The notes beneath the pieces were generated by a model that saw only the letters and a program-made list of their open reading frames with translations, was not told the origin of the DNA and ran no database searches. The translations under genes and the position numbers were made by a program. Source: Demequina zhanjiangensis (lineage in GTDB: Bacteria > Actinomycetota > Actinomycetes > Actinomycetales > Demequinaceae). From it: a DNA stretch of 64,000 nucleotides. This document shows, in pieces, positions 53,785-61,402 of the stretch; the first letter of the stretch is position 1, and the number at the start of each line of letters is the position of its first letter. The stretch spans positions 310,001-374,000 of the forward strand of contig NZ_JAUHPV010000002.1 in NCBI RefSeq assembly GCF_030418315.1, read 5' to 3'.

Positions 53785-54249
53785 TTGAGCAAGGCTTCGG
53801 AGACGACCCTCCATGTCCGCGAGCGCGCCCTCACGGCCCCTGCCGCCGACTACGGCGCGCCTGCGGACGCCGAGGCGTGGCTCGCGGGGATGGACATCGC
53901 GTTCCCCGACGTGGCGATCACCCTCATCTGCGGGTGGGACGGCACCACGTCGCTGCTCATGAGCACCGGGGGCGGCATCGTCGGTGCGGGCAGCCACGAA
54001 GGGGTCGAGCGCGCGGCGCGGAGCTTCGTCTCCGAGGCGGGCGCGTGGGTCGACGAGATGCTGCCGCTGCCCGAGGACCTCTCCTACCCCGAGATGGGTC
54101 GGGTCCGCTTCTTCATCCGTCGCGGCGACCGTTGCGTCGTGGGCGAGGCCTCGGATCTGGAGCTGTCCGAGGGCCGGCACGATCTGGCCGGGCTCTACGA
54201 GCTCGCGCAGATCGTCGTGACCCAGGTGAGGCGCAGCGCGCGCGGCTGA
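53785..54249 (+). CDS. Hypothetical protein
   Basis: 154 residues from a TTG start with GAGGAGG about 5 nt upstream. It is a soluble acidic protein with an alpha/beta pattern: WLAGMDIAFPDVAITLICGWDGTTSLLMSTGGGIVGAGSHEGVERAARSF and PEMGRVRFFIRRGDRCVVGEASDLELSEGRHDLAGLYELAQIVVTQ. I recognise no domain. It is 30 nt after metZ and 48 nt before the first anchored-protein gene, so it may belong to either. Confidence 0.7.
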   Translation: MSKASETTLHVRERALTAPAADYGAPADAEAWLAGMDIAFPDVAITLICGWDGTTSLLMSTGGGIVGAGSHEGVERAARSFVSEAGAWVDEMLPLPEDLSYPEMGRVRFFIRRGDRCVVGEASDLELSEGRHDLAGLYELAQIVVTQVRRSARG

Positions 54250-54296: not shown

Positions 54297-54890
54297 ATGG
54301 GAGACAATGCAGCCGCCCCAGACGGCTCCACCGCGCCACCCGCTCGCTCCCTCGCGGAGCGCCTCGTCCCGGCCCCGTCGTGGCCCGGCGCACTGCTCGT
54401 GCTCGCCCTGTCGCTGGGCCTGATCCTCGGACTGCCTGCACTCGCGACCACGATGCACGGAGGCGGGTATCCCGCCGACGAGCCGTTCGAGGCCGCGCCT
54501 GGGCTCCAGGTCACGGTCGCCGAGGGCTGGGAGTACGACGACAGCAGCGGGATCTTCTACACCTTCACCCGGGCAGGCGCGACGCTGGTGCTCGTGCCCG
54601 CGGTCGGCTCTGACCAGAGCGTTGAGGAGGCGCTTCAGGTCAGCACCGATGCGCTCGAGCAGTCGAGCTATCTGGTCACCGACCCTCAGACCTTCACGAC
54701 CGACGCAGGCGACAGCGGCATGGTCGTCTCCGGTCACTCCGACACCGAGGCATCGGCCACCTGGATCATCGAGCATGACGGCGGCCAGGCCACGTTCCTG
54801 CTCACCGGGCCCGACTCGACCTTCTCCGAGACCTACGAGGCGGCCGACGCTCTCGTGCAGACCGCCGTCGTCCTGGAGGTGACCGAGTGA
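54297..54890 (+). CDS. Membrane-anchored extracytoplasmic protein, cassette copy A
   Basis: 197 residues. A Pro/Ala-rich cytoplasmic start is followed by one helix (PGALLVLALSLGLILGLPALA) and an extracytoplasmic domain of about 140 residues: LQVTVAEGWEYDDSSGIFYTFTRAGATLVLVPA, then QTFTTDAGDSGMVVSGHSD and WIIEHDGGQATFLLTGPDSTF. It is clearly homologous to the protein at 56109. I recognise no named family. It overlaps the PrsW gene (GTGA), so the two products are made together and the protein may be a substrate or partner of that protease. Confidence 0.78.
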   Translation: MGDNAAAPDGSTAPPARSLAERLVPAPSWPGALLVLALSLGLILGLPALATTMHGGGYPADEPFEAAPGLQVTVAEGWEYDDSSGIFYTFTRAGATLVLVPAVGSDQSVEEALQVSTDALEQSSYLVTDPQTFTTDAGDSGMVVSGHSDTEASATWIIEHDGGQATFLLTGPDSTFSETYEAADALVQTAVVLEVTE

Positions 54891-56029
54891 GCACGCCAGC
54901 CGCCTTCGTCGCGCCCCGCACACGGAGCGCTTTCGATCCCCGCTCGCTCGTCTTCTGGGTAGGCGTCGGCCTGCTGATCTACGGGATAGTGCAGGCAGGA
55001 TCGCACGTGGCCATCTCCTTGCTGAGTGCGCCCGTGCCAGGCGCCTTCGCGCTGCTCCTCTGGTCCGGGTACGCCGCCGCCGTCCTCGCGCTCATCCAGC
55101 GCTTCGCCGCCTTCGAGCGACGGCCCGCTCTCTCGATCGCGATGGCGTTCGTCTGGGGAGGCTTCATCGCCACCGGCATCGGCACGGTCGCTGCACCGGC
55201 CGCTCACTCCATCGCCGCCGACCTGGTCGGCGCCGACAACGGCTGGGCGACCGCAATCGGAGCCGGAGCGGTCGAGGAGCCTCTCAAGATGCTGGGCCTG
55301 GTCGCGCTCGCGCTGATCCCCGGGGCGCGCATCCGCTCAGCGGCCGACGGCCTGTTCTACGGCGCGATCATCGGACTCGGCTTCGAGGTGGTCGAGTCGT
55401 TCCTGTACTCCACCCAGTGGGAGGTGTCAGGCACCAGCTTCTCCACCATCGTCCTCTACCTGTTCCTGCGAGGGTTCGTCGGCGGGCTCGCCTCGCATCC
55501 CACCTACTCGGCGATCGCGGGAGCCGGCGTGGGCTACTTCTTCGGCTCGACGGCGAGCGCGATCAAACGGTGGGCCGTGATGCTCGGCACGCTCCTCCTC
55601 GCGATCGTGCTGCATATCTTCTTCGACTCGCCGCTGCTCGAGTTCGACAACCCGCTGCCGTCCACGGCCATCAAGAGCATCCCCGTCATCATCCTCGCGC
55701 TCATCATCGTGCGGATCGTGCGCGGCAAGCAGCGCAAGGCCCTCGAGGCGGGTGCCCGCGACGTGGTTCCTGATGAGCTGGTGAGCCCCGCGGACTTCGA
55801 GTCGCTGAGGACGCGCAAGGCCCGCAAGCAGGCCGTCAAGGCGATGAAGAAGGAGCATGGGCGCAAGGCCGCGCGAGCGCTCACGGGAGTGCAGCGCGCC
55901 CAGCTCGACCTTCTGGTCTCCGCACTCGACGATGGCATGGAGTCAGTCGAGGCGCGCGCGGCGTGGCAGCGTCTCTATGACGCACAGCAGGGGCTTCGGG
56001 AACACATGCCGACGGCCGCGACCGGCTGA
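54887..56029 (+). CDS. PrsW-family intramembrane metalloprotease, cassette copy A
   Basis: 380 residues with about eight helices. The PrsW motifs are AGAVEEPLKML with Glu130-Glu131, the GLFYGAIIGLGFEVVESFLYS block, a His in LASHPTYSAIAGAGVGYFFG and VLHIFFDSP. The Glu pair and these histidines are the expected metal site inside the membrane. Beyond residue 285 is a long basic cytoplasmic tail (LRTRKARKQAVKAMKKEHGRKAARALTGVQRAQLDLLVSALDDG) not needed for the protease fold. GTG start overlapping the anchored-protein gene. Confidence 0.88.
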   Translation: MSTPAAFVAPRTRSAFDPRSLVFWVGVGLLIYGIVQAGSHVAISLLSAPVPGAFALLLWSGYAAAVLALIQRFAAFERRPALSIAMAFVWGGFIATGIGTVAAPAAHSIAADLVGADNGWATAIGAGAVEEPLKMLGLVALALIPGARIRSAADGLFYGAIIGLGFEVVESFLYSTQWEVSGTSFSTIVLYLFLRGFVGGLASHPTYSAIAGAGVGYFFGSTASAIKRWAVMLGTLLLAIVLHIFFDSPLLEFDNPLPSTAIKSIPVIILALIIVRIVRGKQRKALEAGARDVVPDELVSPADFESLRTRKARKQAVKAMKKEHGRKAARALTGVQRAQLDLLVSALDDGMESVEARAAWQRLYDAQQGLREHMPTAATG

Positions 56030-56108
56030 CAGTCGCGGCACCTCCGCGGGGTTACGCTGGCTCCAAGTTTCCGACCCAGGCCGGCTTCGAACGCGAGGAG
56101 TGTGACCC

Positions 56109-56696
56109 ATGTTCCTCGCCGAGACCGGCCCCACCGGCCGGATCCCCTTGGCGATCCGCTTGGTCGGCAGGAACGGCGTGGCGGGGGCGGTCATCGTCGG
56201 CCTGATCGCCCTGGTCTACCTGGTGGGGATCCCTGCGCTCGACGCCGCGCTCCGCGGGCCCGCGATCGACGCGTCGAGGGTGACCTCGTCCAGCGGCATC
56301 AGCGTCGTCCCGCCCGAGGGGTGGGCGTACGACCCCGACTCCGAGACGTTCCAGGTCTTCACCCAGGCCGGCGCGACGATCATCGTGGCCCCGGCGCTCC
56401 CGTCGGACGGGACGCTTGAGGAGGCGGTGGCGCCCACGCAGGAGCAGCTCGCGTCCGATGAAGGCGGCCAGTGGGTGGTCAGCGAGCCTCAGTACTTCAC
56501 CACGCGCGCGGGCGACCGGGCGGTCCTGCTCGCCGCGCAGAACCCGACCGACGCGCAGCTGCTGTGGATCGTCGAGCACGAGGGTTGGCACGTGCGGGTC
56601 GTCATGAACGCGCCCGCGGCATCGCTCGAGACAGCGTTCGGCTCCGCGCAGGAGCTCGTCGAGTCGATGCGGATCCAGCCGGGCGGTGCGCCGTGA
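56109..56696 (+). CDS. Membrane-anchored extracytoplasmic protein, cassette copy B
   Basis: 195 residues. One N-terminal helix (VAGAVIVGLIALVYLVGIPAL) leads to a domain homologous to that of 54297: ISVVPPEGWAYDPDSETFQVFTQAGATIIVAPALPSDGTLEEAV, then EPQYFTTRAGDRAVLLAAQNPTDAQLLWIVEHEGWHVRVVMN. The conserved skeleton EGWxYDxxSxxFxxFTxAGAT and PQxFTTxAGD defines the family here. GAGGAG precedes the ATG. The stop overlaps the second PrsW gene (GTGA). Confidence 0.78.
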   Translation: MFLAETGPTGRIPLAIRLVGRNGVAGAVIVGLIALVYLVGIPALDAALRGPAIDASRVTSSSGISVVPPEGWAYDPDSETFQVFTQAGATIIVAPALPSDGTLEEAVAPTQEQLASDEGGQWVVSEPQYFTTRAGDRAVLLAAQNPTDAQLLWIVEHEGWHVRVVMNAPAASLETAFGSAQELVESMRIQPGGAP

Positions 56697-57904
56697 TCGC
56701 CCCGCGCACCGCGTCGGCCATCGATGTCCGGTCGCCCGTGATGTGGGTGGGCGCGGCGCTCTTCCTCATCGGCGCTGTCCGGCTCCTGCCCGCGGTGTTC
56801 AGGTCGCTGACCGAGGCTCCGGGACCCGGGCTGCTGGCCTTCACCCTGTGGTCGGCATACGGGATCGTCGGCGCGCTGCTGATCTACAGGTTCGAGATGT
56901 TCGAGCGTCGGTCGCTGCGCACGACTGCGGTGGCTTTCGTGAGTGGGCTGGTGCTGGTGCCCGGCATCGCGATGGTCGCGTCGCCCGCCCTGCACGGAAT
57001 CCTGGTGTCGTTGCGTGGATCGGCGTCCGACTGGGACTCCGCCATCGCCGCTCCGCTCGTCGAGGAGCCGCTCAAGCTGCTCGTCGTGCTCGCGCTCGCG
57101 CTGATCCCCGGCGCCCGCATGCGTTCCGCCTCGGACGGCCTGTTCTTCGGCGTCATGGTGGGCCTCGGCTTCCAAGTCACCGAGAACTTCCTGTACTCGA
57201 CGCAGTGGTCAGCCCAGGGCGCCGACCCGCAGCTCGTGCTCCAGACGTTCATCCTCCGCGGCTTCGTCACGGGCCTGTGGTCGCATGCGACATACGCCGC
57301 GATCACCGGCGCCGCGATCGGCTACTTCTTCGGCTCGACCCGCGACCTCAGGACCAGGTCGCTCGTGCTCGCCTTCGCACTAGGCGCGGCGATGCTGCTC
57401 CACGGGTTCTTCAACTCGCCGCTGCTGCAGCTGGGCGTGGTGCCGTCGGCCATCCTGAAGGGCATCCCCGTGCTCCTGCTGGGGCTCGCGACGCTGCGGT
57501 GGGTCCACATGCGCGAACGGCGCGCGCTCCGTGCCGACGCCCGCGACCTCGTCCCCGACGAGCACGTCAGCCCGGATGACTTCGACGGCCTCGTGACGAG
57601 GCGTGTGCGACGACGCAACCGCAGGATCATGACCGACAGGTTCGGCCCGACGGCAGCGCTCGCCTTCGCTCGCCTGCAGCGCGCTCAGCTCGACACCCTC
57701 ATCACCGCGCACGACGACGGCGTGGGTTCCGCGCGTTACGTTCAGGCGGTCCAGGAGCTCAGGTTCGCGAAGAAGGATCTGCGCGCCGAGGTCGAGGCCG
57801 CAGCGGCCGCGCAGCCGCCCGCGATGGCTGGGGGCCCTGGCGGCGCGACGCCTCCCGATCCGGAGACGCCGCCCGCCGGTCAGCGGCCCGCTGGCGAACG
57901 GTAG
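56693..57904 (+). CDS. PrsW-family intramembrane metalloprotease, cassette copy B
   Basis: 403 residues, a paralogue of 54887. It has APLVEEPLKLLVVLALALIPGARMRSASDGLFFG (Glu124-Glu125), GLGFQVTENFLYSTQWS, LWSHATYAAITGAAIGYFFGS and LLHGFFNSP. The basic tail is shared as VPDEHVSPDDFDGLVTRRVRRRNRRIM and FARLQRAQLDTLITAHDDG, then a Pro/Ala-rich end. GTG start. Its last 25 bp overlap the 3' end of the convergent copper ATPase gene. Confidence 0.88.
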   Translation: MIAPRTASAIDVRSPVMWVGAALFLIGAVRLLPAVFRSLTEAPGPGLLAFTLWSAYGIVGALLIYRFEMFERRSLRTTAVAFVSGLVLVPGIAMVASPALHGILVSLRGSASDWDSAIAAPLVEEPLKLLVVLALALIPGARMRSASDGLFFGVMVGLGFQVTENFLYSTQWSAQGADPQLVLQTFILRGFVTGLWSHATYAAITGAAIGYFFGSTRDLRTRSLVLAFALGAAMLLHGFFNSPLLQLGVVPSAILKGIPVLLLGLATLRWVHMRERRALRADARDLVPDEHVSPDDFDGLVTRRVRRRNRRIMTDRFGPTAALAFARLQRAQLDTLITAHDDGVGSARYVQAVQELRFAKKDLRAEVEAAAAAQPPAMAGGPGGATPPDPETPPAGQRPAGER

Positions 57905-60192
57905 CCGGCGAAGCGCCGAAGTCGCAGCGAGTTCCCAACGACGAACAGGCTCGACGCACCCATCGCTGCGGCGGCGATCATCGGGTCGAGGATGCCGAAG
58001 GCGGCGAGAGGAATCGCGGCGCTGTTGTACGCGAACGCCCAGAAGAGGTTGCCGCGGATGGTGCCGAGCGTCCTGCGCGACAGTGCGATGGCGTCGGCCG
58101 CCGCCCTCAGGTCGCCCGAGACGATGGTGAGGTCGGAGGCCTCACGCGCCACGTCGGTGCCGGTGCCCACCGCGAGGCCGAGGTCGGCCTGCGCGAGCGC
58201 GGGGGCATCGTTGATGCCGTCGCCGACCATCGCGACGCGGGCGCCCTCCGCCTGGAGGGTGCGCACCACGTCGGCCTTGTCGCCCGGAAGCACCTCGGCG
58301 ATGACGCGCGAGATGCCGACCTCGTCCGCGACCGCCTGCGCCGCGCGTGAGTTGTCGCCGGTGAGCAGGACCACATCGAGACCGAGCTCGCGGAAAGCCC
58401 GCACGGCCTCCGCCGAGGTGGGCTTCACCGCGTCGCTGACCACGAGCAAGGCCTCCGCCACGAGCGGCGTGCGGACGGCGAGTCCACCCATGCCGAGACC
58501 ACCTGCGGCGACCGGGGAGCGGCCGACCAGCACGGCCGTGCGCCCCTCGCCCTCAGCCGCGTGAGCGGCCTGCTCGAGAACCTCGGGGACCTCGTCGAAC
58601 AGGCGACGCGATCCCACGTGAACCTCGGCGTTGGCGCCGTCTGCGCCCGCGCCCTTGACGGTGGCGACCACGCCGGAGCCGGGGATCGCACGGAAGCCCT
58701 TGACCGGGACTCGGGCGGGCCGGGCGGCAGCGATCGCCTGAGCGATCGGGTGCTCCGAGCGTGCCTCCACCGAGGCGGCGGAATCGAGCAGGACATCGGC
58801 CTGCTCCGGCGTGAGGCCAGGCGTCTCGCTGGCGACTAGAGTCATGCGCCCCTCGGTCACAGTGCCGGTCTTGTCGAGCACGATCGTGGTCACCTCGCGG
58901 GTGTCCTCGAGCGCCTCGGGACCCTTGACGAGCACGCCCAACTGGGCGCCTCGGCCGGTGCCGACCATGATCGCGAGCGGCGTGGCGAGTCCGAGCGCGC
59001 ACGGGCAGCTGATGATGAGGACGGCCACGGCGGCGGTGAACGCCTGGGCCGCCGAATGCCCCGTGACGAGCCAGAGCCCGAGCGTGACGATGCTGAGCGC
59101 GATGACCGCGGGCACGAAGATGCGGGCCACTCGGTCGGCGAGGCGCTGCACCTTCGCACGGCCGGTCTGCGCCTCGTCCACCATGCGGGCGATCTGGGCG
59201 AGCATGGTCTCCGACCCCACGCGGACCGCCTCCACCGTGAGGGCGCCGTCAGTCGCGACAGTGCCGCCCACCACCTCGGACCCCACGTGCGCGCGCACCG
59301 GAACCGACTCGCCGGTGACGAGGCTCGCGTCCACGGCGGCCTCACCGTCGACCACGACTCCGTCGGTCGCGACGATCTCACCGGGCCTGGTCACGAAGCG
59401 CATGCCCACCTGAAGGTCAGCGCGGTCGATCACGGTGCCGTCCTCCAGCCGGGCTGTCGAGGACTGACGGCTGCTCAACGCGCGGATGGCGTCGCCCGCG
59501 CGCGCCGACGAGCGGACCTCCATCCACTTGCCCAGCAGGATCAGCGTGACGATCACCGCGCCCGTCTCGAAGTAGACGTGGGCGTCCGCGAGCGCACTGC
59601 CCGCGTGTGCGAGCAGCACGACCGTCGACCATGTCCACGCAGCGACGGTGCCGAGCGTGACCAGGGTGTCCATCGTGGTGGATCGGTGCCGGGCGGCACC
59701 GATCGTGGCCCGGTGGAACGGCCACGCGGACCAGCCGATCACCGGCGTCGCGAGCGCGAAGGCGACCCACTCCCATCCGGGGAAGTGGAGCGCGGGGATC
59801 ATCGAGATCACCATGAGCGGCGCCGTGAGGATCGCGGCCAGGGTGAAGCGGCGGCGGTAGTCGGCGATGCGCGCCGCGTCGGCGGCGGCGTGCGCCTCGT
59901 GCTCCTCCTCAAGAGTCGGTCCCTCGCTGCCAGAGGAGGCCGGCACCTGGTAGCCGAGCTCGGCGATCGTGGACCGCATCATCTCCGCGAGCGCCTCAGG
60001 GTCGATCGTCCCGTCCGTGCGTACGGTCGCGCGACGGGTCGCGAAGTTGACCGTCGCGTCGGCCACGCCGTCCAGGCGCGAGAGTCCGCCCTGGATGGTC
60101 GCCGCGCACGACGAGCACGTCATGCCCTCGACGGGCAGGGTGACGGGCGGGGCGGCCCCGGTGTCGGGTGCGGTGTCAGACGTGGCGGTCAT
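57880..60192 (-). CDS. copA: Copper-translocating P-type ATPase (P1B-1)
   Basis: 770 residues. The N-terminal heavy-metal domain has GMTCSSCA (Cys26, Cys29). Membrane helices follow, then the actuator loop with VTGESVPV, the Cys396-Pro-Cys398 transport site, phosphorylated Asp440 in DKTGTVTEG and the hinge GDGINDAPALAQADLG. Helix 7 YNSAAIPLA and helix 8 MGASSLFVVGNSLRL carry the YN and MxxSS pattern of Cu(I) exporters. It is 76 nt downstream of copZ on the same strand; convergent with PrsW copy B. Confidence 0.95.
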   Translation of the reverse strand: MTATSDTAPDTGAAPPVTLPVEGMTCSSCAATIQGGLSRLDGVADATVNFATRRATVRTDGTIDPEALAEMMRSTIAELGYQVPASSGSEGPTLEEEHEAHAAADAARIADYRRRFTLAAILTAPLMVISMIPALHFPGWEWVAFALATPVIGWSAWPFHRATIGAARHRSTTMDTLVTLGTVAAWTWSTVVLLAHAGSALADAHVYFETGAVIVTLILLGKWMEVRSSARAGDAIRALSSRQSSTARLEDGTVIDRADLQVGMRFVTRPGEIVATDGVVVDGEAAVDASLVTGESVPVRAHVGSEVVGGTVATDGALTVEAVRVGSETMLAQIARMVDEAQTGRAKVQRLADRVARIFVPAVIALSIVTLGLWLVTGHSAAQAFTAAVAVLIISCPCALGLATPLAIMVGTGRGAQLGVLVKGPEALEDTREVTTIVLDKTGTVTEGRMTLVASETPGLTPEQADVLLDSAASVEARSEHPIAQAIAAARPARVPVKGFRAIPGSGVVATVKGAGADGANAEVHVGSRRLFDEVPEVLEQAAHAAEGEGRTAVLVGRSPVAAGGLGMGGLAVRTPLVAEALLVVSDAVKPTSAEAVRAFRELGLDVVLLTGDNSRAAQAVADEVGISRVIAEVLPGDKADVVRTLQAEGARVAMVGDGINDAPALAQADLGLAVGTGTDVAREASDLTIVSGDLRAAADAIALSRRTLGTIRGNLFWAFAYNSAAIPLAAFGILDPMIAAAAMGASSLFVVGNSLRLRRFAGYRSPAGR

Positions 60193-60268
60193 CGATGGCT
60201 CCGTGAGCGTAGGAGAGGTGTGGTGGGAGCGCGGCCGGCGCGAGTCGTCGCCCGGCCGGGCTCGCGGG

Positions 60269-60493
60269 TCAGGCGACGGTGTAGCCCGCGCCGGTCACGG
60301 CCTCGTCGATCGCGAACTCGAGGTCGTCGGCGGGCACGGTGCCGTCGGTGAGGACCTTGACGTTGCCGGTGGCGACGTCGATCTCCGCGCCGGAGACGCC
60401 GTCGGTCGCGGTGAGCGCCTTGCGGACCTTGCCGGCGCAGCCTTCGCAGGTCATGCCGTGGACGGTGATGTCGATGGCGGGGGTGGCGGTCAT
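60269..60493 (-). CDS. copZ: Copper chaperone, heavy-metal-associated domain
   Basis: 74 residues, one ferredoxin-like HMA fold. ITVHGMTCEGCAGKVRKAL gives the metal-binding Cys16 and Cys19. It delivers Cu(I) to CopA. It is the first gene of the copZ-copA unit, under the MerR-type promoter at 60542. Confidence 0.93.
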   Translation of the reverse strand: MTATPAIDITVHGMTCEGCAGKVRKALTATDGVSGAEIDVATGNVKVLTDGTVPADDLEFAIDEAVTGAGYTVA

Positions 60494-60541
60494 GGTGTCC
60501 TCCTGGGTCTCAGGGCGCCCTGGTGGCGCCTGCTGAGCACG

Positions 60542-60573
60542 AGAGTAGACCTTCCAGTGCGGTGGAAGGTCAA
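60542..60573 (-). promoter_or_regulatory. MerR-type promoter and operator of copZ-copA
   Basis: Minus-strand TTGACC (60568-60573) and TACTCT (60542-60547) are 20 bp apart, the long spacer typical of MerR activation. The dyad ACCTTCCA-N6-TGGAAGGT (60549-60570) fills the spacer. Confidence 0.85.
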
Positions 60574-60896
60574 GTCGCGGGAGCGTCCCGCTCCACCACG
60601 TGATACCCGAGCCCGGTGATCGCCGCACCGGCGAGCATCTCCAGGTCCTCGGCGGGCATGGTCCCGTCGGGCCGGAGCACCGCACGACGCGTCACGGGAC
60701 TGACGCCCGCGGAGGCCACTCCGGGCAGCTGAAGCAGGCCATCGCGGATGGTCGTGGCGCAGCCCGCACATGTCATCCCACCGATGCGCAGCTGAACGTC
60801 CCCTTCGGACACCTCGGGCTCTGTGACGACCTCCGGCTCGGCACCATCCCCCTCAGACGAACGCTTCCTCAGCCCGGCGATCGGCCTGAACCTCAT
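60570..60896 (-). CDS. Heavy-metal-associated domain protein with acidic N-terminal extension
   Basis: 108 residues. A basic start and an acidic linker (EGDGAEPEVVTEPEVSEGD) lead to one HMA domain with GGMTCAGCATTIRDGL (Cys43, Cys46). It resembles the N-terminal metal domain of the ATPase standing alone (SPVTRRAVLRPDGTMPAEDLEMLAGAAITGLGYHV parallels the CopA start). It is co-translated with the MerR gene (4-bp overlap) and may buffer or pass copper to the regulator or pump. Confidence 0.85.
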   Translation of the reverse strand: MRFRPIAGLRKRSSEGDGAEPEVVTEPEVSEGDVQLRIGGMTCAGCATTIRDGLLQLPGVASAGVSPVTRRAVLRPDGTMPAEDLEMLAGAAITGLGYHVVERDAPAT

Positions 60897-61402
60897 GCGT
60901 CGGCCCTCACTGGGATCGTCGAGCCGAGCAGCGCCGGACCGGAGTGGGCACCAACGCCGCGGTGAGCGTCAGCGCCATGGTGAGCGTGCGCGGACGAGTC
61001 GGCTCGGCCCGCCTCGATCACCTGGCATCGCGCCGGATCGGTGCACGCGACGGGGTCGAGGCTCTCGGCGCGCGACCGCATCACGAGCAGCTCCTGCTTG
61101 GCCGCGAGGAGGCTCTCGATCTGCCGGTCGATGTCGTCGAGTCGCCGGGTGAGCAGCTCCGTGGTGTGCTGACACGTGGACTCGCCTGCGCGCTTCATCG
61201 CGAGGATCTCGCTCGTCTCCGCAAGCGAGAGCCCTGCGGCCTGGGAGTCACGGATGAACCGCAGCTGCGCCAGGGCCTCGTCCCCGTAGTCGCGGTAGCC
61301 GTTGGCGTGGCGCGGCGCCTCCTCCATCAGTCCGATGGACTCGTAATAGCGCACGGTCTTGGCCGTGACGCCTGCCTGCGCGGCAAGATCACCGATTCTC
61401 AT
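60893..61402 (-). CDS. MerR-family heavy-metal-responsive regulator
   Basis: 169 residues. The winged helix-turn-helix MRIGDLAAQAGVTAKTVRYYESIGLMEEAPRHANGYRDYG is followed by a dimerisation helix (82-111) and the metal loop ACTDPARCQ (Cys120, Cys126). ESTCQHT places a Cys at residue 77, the position that is Ser in CueR and Cys79 in the zinc sensor ZntR. The His-rich tail (HAHHGADAHRGVGAHS) is extra. Context favours copper; sequence leaves divalent metals open. Confidence 0.9.
   Translation of the reverse strand: MRIGDLAAQAGVTAKTVRYYESIGLMEEAPRHANGYRDYGDEALAQLRFIRDSQAAGLSLAETSEILAMKRAGESTCQHTTELLTRRLDDIDRQIESLLAAKQELLVMRSRAESLDPVACTDPARCQVIEAGRADSSAHAHHGADAHRGVGAHSGPALLGSTIPVRADA

What the first reader, a model, noticed from the sequence alone, without database searches (positions are those of the whole stretch)
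54297..57904. Tandem cassette of an anchored extracytoplasmic protein with a PrsW-type protease
Seen: two adjacent units, each a single-helix protein with the same outer domain (EGWxYDxxS, FTxAGAT, PQxFTTxAGD) overlapping by GTGA a PrsW-type gene with EE, GLGF..E, H and H-FF motifs and a shared basic tail. Known: PrsW in Bacillus cleaves an anti-sigma factor at the membrane. Inference: the small proteins are the dedicated substrates or sensors, and a duplicated, paired protease-substrate system is present. No sigma factor is nearby, so the output is unknown.
Basis: partly seen in the sequence, partly recalled or inferred. Interest (0 to 1): 0.7.

Follow-up and report, generated by a model that had tools for sequence, protein, structure and literature searches.

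The report
Membrane protease with dedicated outer-face partner
A bacterium of the genus Demequina carries two copies of a gene pair that joins a membrane-embedded protease to its own membrane-anchored outer-surface protein; the same overlapping pair recurs across Actinomycetota, so the unnamed small protein is very probably the protease's dedicated partner.

Summary
In detail: two S-PrsW units (54297-56029, 56109-57904) lie in tandem in a Demequina genome, each small gene (S) overlapping its PrsW gene by GTGA. In 44 Demequina genomes, 41 of 42 profile hits of S are followed by PrsW; the other is at a contig end. Outside the genus, of 34 hits at E <= 1e-6, 31 are followed by PrsW and 3 are at contig ends; weaker hits mostly are not. 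Of 81 distinct pairs, 76 overlap by exactly 4 bp. S and PrsW trees agree, and paired proteases keep the catalytic motifs. S matches no named sequence family; it has an N-in anchor, a short cytoplasmic tail and a Mog1/PsbP/LpqN-fold outer domain. I read the pair as a two-gene module: a PrsW glutamic protease with a dedicated outer-face partner, more likely sensor or adaptor than anti-sigma-like substrate. Shedding of S by PrsW is a live rival. Most PrsWs of the order have no S. Cleavage, complex and output are untested. New variant of a known kind.

The parts
54297..54890 (+). S1: single-pass, N-in/C-out membrane protein with Mog1/PsbP-like outer domain, 197 aa
   Evidence: translation; AlphaFold model pLDDT 87.6; charge count on both sides of the helix
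54381..54455 (+). S1 transmembrane helix (residues 29-53)
   Evidence: helix 29-53 in the model; best hydropathy window starts at residue 32
54477..54887 (+). S1 outer domain (residues 61-197), Mog1/PsbP/LpqN fold
   Evidence: Foldseek E 3.7e-6 to CyanoP; VIA-align Z 12.8 to LpqN 6e5d, rmsd 2.4 over 125 residues
54887..54890 (+). GTGA: start codon of PrsW1 overlapping the stop codon of S1
   Evidence: sequence; same kind of 4-bp overlap in 76 of 81 distinct pairs
54887..56029 (+). PrsW1, PF13367 intramembrane protease, 380 aa
   Evidence: E 1.3e-28, residues 80-268
55274..55279 (+). PrsW1 EE motif (residues 130-131)
   Evidence: EE invariant in 31 of 31 paired PrsWs aligned
56109..56696 (+). 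S2: paralogue of S1, 195 aa
56693..56696 (+). GTGA: start codon of PrsW2 overlapping the stop codon of S2
   Evidence: sequence
56693..57904 (+). PrsW2, PF13367 intramembrane protease, 403 aa
   Evidence: E 1.1e-32, residues 75-246; AlphaFold model pLDDT 91.1, pTM 0.87, all-helical
57062..57067 (+). PrsW2 EE motif (residues 124-125); K128, F160, E164, H198 and H237 are also invariant
   Evidence: 31 of 31 paired PrsWs aligned

Best explanation
S and PrsW form a two-gene module: a catalytically competent PrsW-type glutamic intramembrane protease made together with its own single-pass partner. S sits N-in/C-out, its helix beside PrsW, and holds a Mog1/PsbP-like domain on the outer face. The most likely role of S is as a non-catalytic outer subunit (sensor or substrate adaptor) that stabilises or gates its own PrsW and lets it cut a membrane protein encoded elsewhere. 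Demequina genomes keep one or two such modules; the two here have separate histories and probably separate inputs. SHOWN: linkage, overlap, shared descent of partners, motifs, predicted fold of S. INFERRED: physical complex, gating, a target encoded elsewhere.
For: Demequina: 41 of 42 S rows are followed by PrsW on the same strand, the other being at a contig end. Outside the genus at E <= 1e-6: 34 rows (2, 29, 3), 31 followed by PrsW, 3 at contig ends (adjacency; in one of the 31, L125, PrsW is split over two frames). In the reverse direction, the one other actinobacterium brought in by a PrsW profile (Lentzea, L185) has S overlapping its PrsW. 4-bp overlap in 76 of 81 distinct pairs, 1 bp in 3. 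S and PrsW tree distances correlate (r 0.67, 34 pairs; 0.63 after removing the tree of the neighbouring Cys/Met enzyme; 0 of 5000 permutations reach either), and the true pairing beats all swapped assignments in 5 two-module genomes. Paired PrsWs (31) lie on one side of a branch from 20 without S. EE, K, F, E, H, H invariant in 31 of 31. The fold of S is that of binding and assembly proteins.
Against: Tight linkage alone makes S and PrsW share descent, so agreeing trees do not prove contact. No complex was modelled. The branch that unites the paired PrsWs has low support (25; the split that sets 19 PrsWs without S apart has 98). Four Demequina PrsW rows have no S; one of them, in G033, is a tandem copy, so S may be dispensable or shared. 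Weak S-profile hits are mostly not beside PrsW: 6 of 10 rows in the order, 10 of 39 in the class, 4 of 7 in the phylum. A dedicated substrate would also be co-encoded and co-inherited.
Confidence: 0.5

Rival explanations
1. S is the dedicated substrate: PrsW cuts S at the outer membrane face and sheds the Mog1/PsbP-like domain (or clears S), possibly followed by a site-2 cut.
For: S has the topology of RsiW, a single-pass protein with a cytoplasmic and an outer part that PrsW cuts (passages of PMC5358783); 25 of 27 S proteins are more positive on the N side of the helix; a poorly conserved linker joins helix and domain; the genome has matches to the M50 site-2 protease family.
Against: The cytoplasmic tail is short, 6-8 residues in six relatives (L090-L095), and no Pfam or NCBIfam domain of that kind is found, so no effector could be freed inside. 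PrsW of B. subtilis is, from recall, not encoded beside its substrate. The near-universal 4-bp coupling suggests subunits made in step.
Confidence: 0.3
2. Classical sigma/anti-sigma signalling: S is an anti-sigma-like protein and PrsW frees a sigma factor.
For: The known job of B. subtilis PrsW is the site-1 cut in RsiW (passages of PMC3498285 and PMC10202637).
Against: No anti-sigma domain found in S, short tail, nearest sigma-factor match on the contig about 30.7 kb away.
Confidence: 0.04
3. An offshoot of PrsW-dependent toxin export, with S as immunity or adaptor protein.
For: PrsW-toxin fusions are described in PMC3482391 (passages), which also notes a PsbP/MOG1-like protein beside T6SS toxin genes; Tsi3, Tli4, TplEi, EagT6 and SciW are among the fold matches of S.
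Against: No toxin family among the Pfam matches of PrsW1/PrsW2. By eye, no third gene recurs beside the pairs beyond near relatives; within Demequina a Cys/Met enzyme gene recurs upstream.
Confidence: 0.06
4. The genes only share a transcript and have no functional link.
For: No biochemical test exists; some PrsWs without S in the order also have a single-helix gene of another kind directly upstream (6 of 19 places), so such neighbours need not mean partnership.
Against: Recurrence across families, orders and classes in unlike surroundings and the Lentzea locus found from the PrsW side.
Confidence: 0.04

Closest known systems
PrsW of Bacillus subtilis (site-1 protease of RsiW)
   Same: PF13367 domain with the conserved glutamate and histidine motifs (role of the motifs by recall)
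   Different: Far below the NCBIfam PrsW equivalog cut-off (34.2 and 47.8 bits against 225); co-encoded outer-domain partner; no anti-sigma domain in the partner and no sigma gene near
PrsWs without S in the same order (beside genes that look like pdxS/T, yebC, ruvC or orn; names by recall from sequence)
   Same: PF13367
   Different: No S-profile hit at 19 of 19 such places inspected; separate branch in the tree. In 6 of the 19 a different, LemA-like single-helix gene lies directly upstream, in 2 of them overlapping by 4 bp
Mog1/PsbP-fold proteins: LpqN, Apa, MTC28, DcrB, PsbP, Mog1, Eag chaperones
   Same: Same predicted fold of the outer domain
   Different: No detectable sequence relation; S has an N-terminal membrane helix and is tied genetically to PrsW
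PrsW-dependent polymorphic toxins (PMC3482391, abstract and passages)
   Same: PrsW peptidase domain
   Different: No toxin family matched in PrsW1/PrsW2

Membership tests
PrsW-protease family (PF13367) | match over Pfam's gathering score | tested here: met
   100.4 and 113.7 bits against 23.5
PrsW-protease family (PF13367) | conserved EE..K, F..E, H and H residues (that these are the active-site motifs is recalled) | tested here: met
   invariant in 31 of 31 paired PrsWs aligned, PrsW1 and PrsW2 among them
PrsW-protease family (PF13367) | fold of a solved relative | tested here: inconclusive
   confident model of PrsW2 but no PDB match at E <= 0.001 by Foldseek
PrsW-protease family (PF13367) | proteolytic activity in the membrane | not testable with these tools
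   needs an experiment
B. subtilis-type PrsW (NF033739 equivalog) with RsiW signalling | score over the equivalog cut-off | tested here: not met
   34.2 and 47.8 bits against 225
B. subtilis-type PrsW (NF033739 equivalog) with RsiW signalling | partner with a cytoplasmic anti-sigma domain | tested here: not met
   no such match in S1, S2 or the 27 members of A3; N tails about 31 and 22 residues here
B. subtilis-type PrsW (NF033739 equivalog) with RsiW signalling | sigma factor gene beside the partner | tested here: not met
   nearest PF04542 match on the contig about 30.7 kb away
Mog1/PsbP-like fold | fold of the outer domain | tested here: met
   28 PDB matches at E <= 0.001, led by CyanoP, Apa and PsbP; Z 13.1 to 10 with Apa, LpqN, PsbP, DcrB, Mog1
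LpqN and other named sequence families of that fold | match to a Pfam or NCBIfam model | tested here: not met
   S1/S2 match no relevant model; of 27 A3 members one has a marginal Pfam match (E 0.0098) to an unrelated family, none an NCBIfam match
Bacterial lipoprotein | lipobox cysteine after the hydrophobic stretch | tested here: not met
   no Cys in the first 70 residues of S1 or S2; 3 of 27 A3 members have one
PrsW-dependent polymorphic toxin | toxin domain fused behind PrsW | tested here: not met
   no toxin family among the Pfam matches of PrsW1/PrsW2

The most novel reading that the evidence does not exclude
A hitherto unnamed two-subunit intramembrane protease of Actinomycetota: a PrsW-family glutamic protease that works only with a cognate, fast-evolving Mog1/PsbP-like outer subunit which senses the envelope and chooses or presents the substrate, much as accessory subunits do for other intramembrane proteases. 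A second arrangement, in which a zinc-ribbon PrsW relative is followed by a proline-rich anchored protein with a weakly similar outer domain, may be an independent version.
Probability: 0.4. Interest if true: 0.75.

Novelty: new variant of a known kind. Interest (0 to 1): 0.6.

Why it matters
PrsW proteases are common (198 of 274 non-Demequina genomes of the order sample), but in the papers seen here a target is described only for Bacillus subtilis (RsiW). A conserved gene pair names the protein to test first: either the missing substrate of a large branch of the family or a regulatory subunit of an intramembrane protease. It also gives a lead for a protein family that neither Pfam nor NCBIfam covers.

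Tried and rejected
Rejected: RsiW-type sigma signalling (no anti-sigma domain, short tail, no sigma gene near). Rejected: recent tandem duplicate (34% and 49% identity; each unit groups with a unit of another species). Rejected: lipoprotein.

Results against or beside the reading: S was found in 9 of 274 non-Demequina genomes of the order sample and in 34 of 394 genomes of the class sample, the window's own included, so most PrsWs have no S. Rows not followed by PrsW: order 6 of 10 (3 of them, G131, G196 and G301, lie behind a zinc-ribbon protein; PF13367 passes its cut-off in L083 and L084, 23.6 and 27.4 bits against 23.5, and is not matched in L085); class 10 of 39 plus 2 at contig ends (2 of the 10, L135 and L137, lie behind a multi-helix protein with a sub-threshold zinc-ribbon match and no PF13367 match); phylum 4 of 7 plus 1 at a contig end. 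All these non-followed rows have E >= 1.6e-6. Some are other proteins (MurF-like frames, a lipoprotein; names by recall). In Demequina 12 of 53 PrsW rows have no profile-detected S upstream: 7 have a divergent single-helix gene at the S position with a 4-bp overlap, 1 is the second half of a split PrsW, 4 lack S (G019, G022 C11, G033 upstream copy, G034 C1:418969). In 6 of 19 PrsW places without S a single-helix gene of another kind (LemA-like, below the Pfam cut-off in the one that matched) lies directly upstream, in 2 with a 4-bp overlap: a coupled single-helix neighbour is therefore not unique to this branch.

Limits: A2 (31 rows) left out S rows cut by locus ends and L021 (no start). A3 holds 15 of the A2 rows, 8 from a second Demequina setting taken from the S position, and 4 from outside the genus; of the 8, L092, L093, L095 and L096 did not match the A2 profile and rest on position, likeness and shared surroundings. 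The chosen start of L096 is probably wrong. The 34-pair test left out L159 (cut neighbour), L162 (cut S), L182 (split PrsW), L172_A (no S; in the PrsW tree only) and the second-setting pairs. In the tree four further rows (L097, L100, L083, L084) did not match the profile and were not used. The 19 places without S were chosen by me from the listed best PF13367 matches, not at random. Gene calls on fetched loci are my own simple caller. The promoter scan found none, and the two terminator-like sites lie inside genes. The search for how many PrsWs of the paired branch lack S across the class failed.

Print: searches with PrsW alone and with protease+actinobacteria, RsiW+intramembrane, LpqN, APH-1+CAAX, Streptomyces+membrane, 'PrsW family'+'intramembrane metalloprotease', Mog1/PsbP/DcrB/DUF1795, and substrate/neighbourhood/anti-sigma terms. 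No title or abstract listed describes this pair; lists were capped, only open-licence papers are held, and apart from passages of five papers I saw listings only.
Full report
OBSERVATION. S1 (54297-54890) overlaps PrsW1 (54887-56029) and S2 (56109-56696) overlaps PrsW2 (56693-57904), each by GTGA. S1/S2 are 34% and PrsW1/PrsW2 49% identical. Both proteases exceed the PF13367 cut-off; S1 and S2 match no relevant Pfam or NCBIfam family. These are the only two PF13367 matches in the genome.

IS THE PAIRING MORE THAN CHANCE? A search with S1 alone found S in 35 of 99 genomes, all in the genus; 29 of 29 fetched loci from other genomes carried PrsW directly downstream. A profile of 31 S proteins (A2) found 42 rows in 36 of 44 genus genomes; PF13367 gave 53 rows in 44 of 44. 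By coordinates 41 of the 42 S rows are followed by PrsW; the remaining one is at a contig end. Of the 8 genomes without a profile match, 7 have a single-helix gene in the same place, overlapping PrsW by 4 bp (L090-L096); the eighth (G019) has only a different PrsW in other surroundings.

BEYOND THE GENUS. Order sample (297 genomes, A2): 10 rows outside the genus, 4 followed by PrsW (G050 twice, G105, G287), 3 (G131, G196, G301) directly behind a zinc-ribbon protein that passes the PF13367 cut-off in two of the three, 3 neither. Class sample (394 genomes, wider profile A3 of 27 rows): 39 rows outside the order, 27 followed by PrsW, 2 at contig ends, 10 not followed (two of these behind a multi-helix zinc-ribbon-like protein without a PF13367 match); all 10 have E >= 1.2e-5. 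Phylum sample (296 genomes): 7 rows outside the class, 2 followed by PrsW (L140, L141), 1 at a contig end, 4 not, all four E >= 2.8e-5. Taking E <= 1e-6 over the three samples: 34 rows, 31 followed by PrsW, 3 at contig ends, none elsewhere. From the PrsW side, the PrsW profile brought in one non-Demequina actinobacterium, Lentzea pudingi, and an S gene (E 1.4e-24) overlaps its PrsW by 4 bp.

TRANSLATIONAL COUPLING. Of 81 distinct S genes with PrsW downstream (48 Demequina, 33 other), 76 share exactly 4 bp with it, 3 share 1 bp and 2 do not overlap; the 4-bp words seen are ATGA and GTGA.

SHARED DESCENT. Trees of 34 S and 35 PrsW proteins of the main Demequina setting agree in most main groups. 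Unit B of the window groups with D. salsinemoris and two unnamed species in both trees (support 100 and 100). S of unit A groups with the single unit of Demequinaceae bacterium Ww84 (98); in the PrsW tree these two are unresolved side by side, and in the wider tree they group with support 98. Distances correlate at r 0.67, and 0.63 after removing the tree of the upstream Cys/Met enzyme; none of 5000 permutations reached either value. With one pair per genome (29) r is 0.84 (partial 0.66). In the five genomes with two units the true pairing gives r 0.666; the best of the swapped assignments gives 0.656 and swapping all five gives 0.141. S distances are about twice PrsW distances (median ratio 2.09). 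Linkage alone can produce shared descent, so this shows a co-inherited unit, not contact.

THE PROTEASE. E124, E125, K128, F160, E164, H198 and H237 (PrsW2 numbers) are invariant in 31 of 31 paired PrsWs aligned, so I expect them to be active. In a tree with 20 PrsWs without S the 31 paired ones lie on one side of a branch; that branch has low support (25), while the split that sets 19 of the 20 apart has 98; four further rows did not match the profile and were not used. At the 19 places inspected no S-profile hit lies nearby, but 6 of them have a LemA-like single-helix gene directly upstream, 2 with a 4-bp overlap. The AlphaFold model of PrsW2 is confident (pLDDT 91.1, pTM 0.87) but has no PDB match at E <= 0.001.

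THE PARTNER. S1 is predicted with confidence (mean pLDDT 87.6; 85-98 in ten-residue blocks from residue 61 on): helix 29-53, then a beta-rich domain with two helices. Its outer domain has the Mog1/PsbP/LpqN fold (Foldseek E 3.7e-6 to CyanoP; VIA-align Z 13.6 to a Jonesia protein of unknown function, 3lyd, 12.8 to LpqN, 11.1 to DcrB and human Mog1). No sequence family covers it. The N side of the helix is more positive in 25 of 27 members, S1 and S2 have no lipobox cysteine, and the N-terminal tail is about 31 and 22 residues here and 6-8 in L090-L095. So S as seen in the family cannot release an anti-sigma-like domain into the cytoplasm.

MECHANISM. Shown: a conserved, overlapping, co-inherited gene pair whose protease keeps its conserved glutamates and histidines and whose partner has a Mog1/PsbP-like outer domain on a single helix. 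Inferred: S is made in step with PrsW, binds it in the membrane and acts as its outer sensor or adaptor; the two units of this genome would then have different inputs. The best rival is that PrsW cuts S itself and sheds the outer domain. The fold decides neither: relatives include Eag chaperones that stabilise transmembrane segments of effectors (PMC12881460, abstract start, passages), immunity proteins and photosystem subunits.

WHAT IS KNOWN. B. subtilis PrsW makes the first cut in RsiW (passages of PMC5358783, PMC10202637, PMC3498285). PMC3482391 (abstract and passages) describes PrsW-toxin fusions and PrsW fused to zinc ribbons and other signalling domains; the passages seen do not mention an outer-domain partner. 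The searches named under Tried and rejected listed no paper on this pair; that speaks for those searches in an open-licence library only.

CHANGES ON CHECKING.

VERDICT. A real two-gene variant of the PrsW family that the curated libraries searched do not name, with the partner's extent and fold now defined and its role still to be tested.

Noticed in passing
L083, L084, L085 (G131, G196, G301): A second arrangement: a zinc-ribbon protein of about 416-427 residues (PF13367 over the cut-off in L083 and L084, not matched in L085) is followed by a proline-rich single-helix protein with a weakly similar outer domain (E 7.7e-6 to 7.2e-5). The motif read as EE elsewhere reads GE here, so activity is doubtful.
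   Followed up: partly
L135, L137 (G468, G412): A proline-rich single-helix protein with a weak S-profile match lies behind a multi-helix protein that resembles the one in L083 by eye but has no PF13367 match.
   Followed up: partly
L068, L071, L073, L075, L079, L082: PrsWs without S in six places have another single-helix gene directly upstream, LemA-like in L068 (below the Pfam cut-off), overlapping by 4 bp in L071 and L079.
   Followed up: partly
L103, L104, L105, L106, L099 (G028, G008, G040, G022, G033): Other Demequina tandems carry an upstream PrsW of only 274-296 residues; in G033 it has no S of its own.
   Followed up: partly
L090-L096, L098: A divergent S-PrsW unit in eight other Demequina genomes stands in another setting, near genes that look like a CoA-disulfide reductase, CsoR and nadC (names by recall from sequence).
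   Followed up: partly
L058 / L087 / L114 (G287): The paired PrsW gene is interrupted by an in-frame stop codon, so this copy is probably broken.
   Followed up: no
L113 (G622): Two S-PrsW units lie back to back and divergent, about 240 bp apart.
   Followed up: no
L097 (G019): The one Demequina genome in which no S-PrsW unit was found has a distant PrsW (PF13367 E 2.3e-16) beside genes for a possibly secreted protein (by eye).
   Followed up: no
window 53785-54249: A 154-aa reading frame just upstream of S1 with no Pfam or NCBIfam match; it may share the transcript.
   Followed up: no
window 57880-61402, - strand: A heavy-metal P-type ATPase, small metal-binding-domain proteins and a MerR-like regulator follow on the opposite strand (names by recall from the frames).
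   Followed up: no
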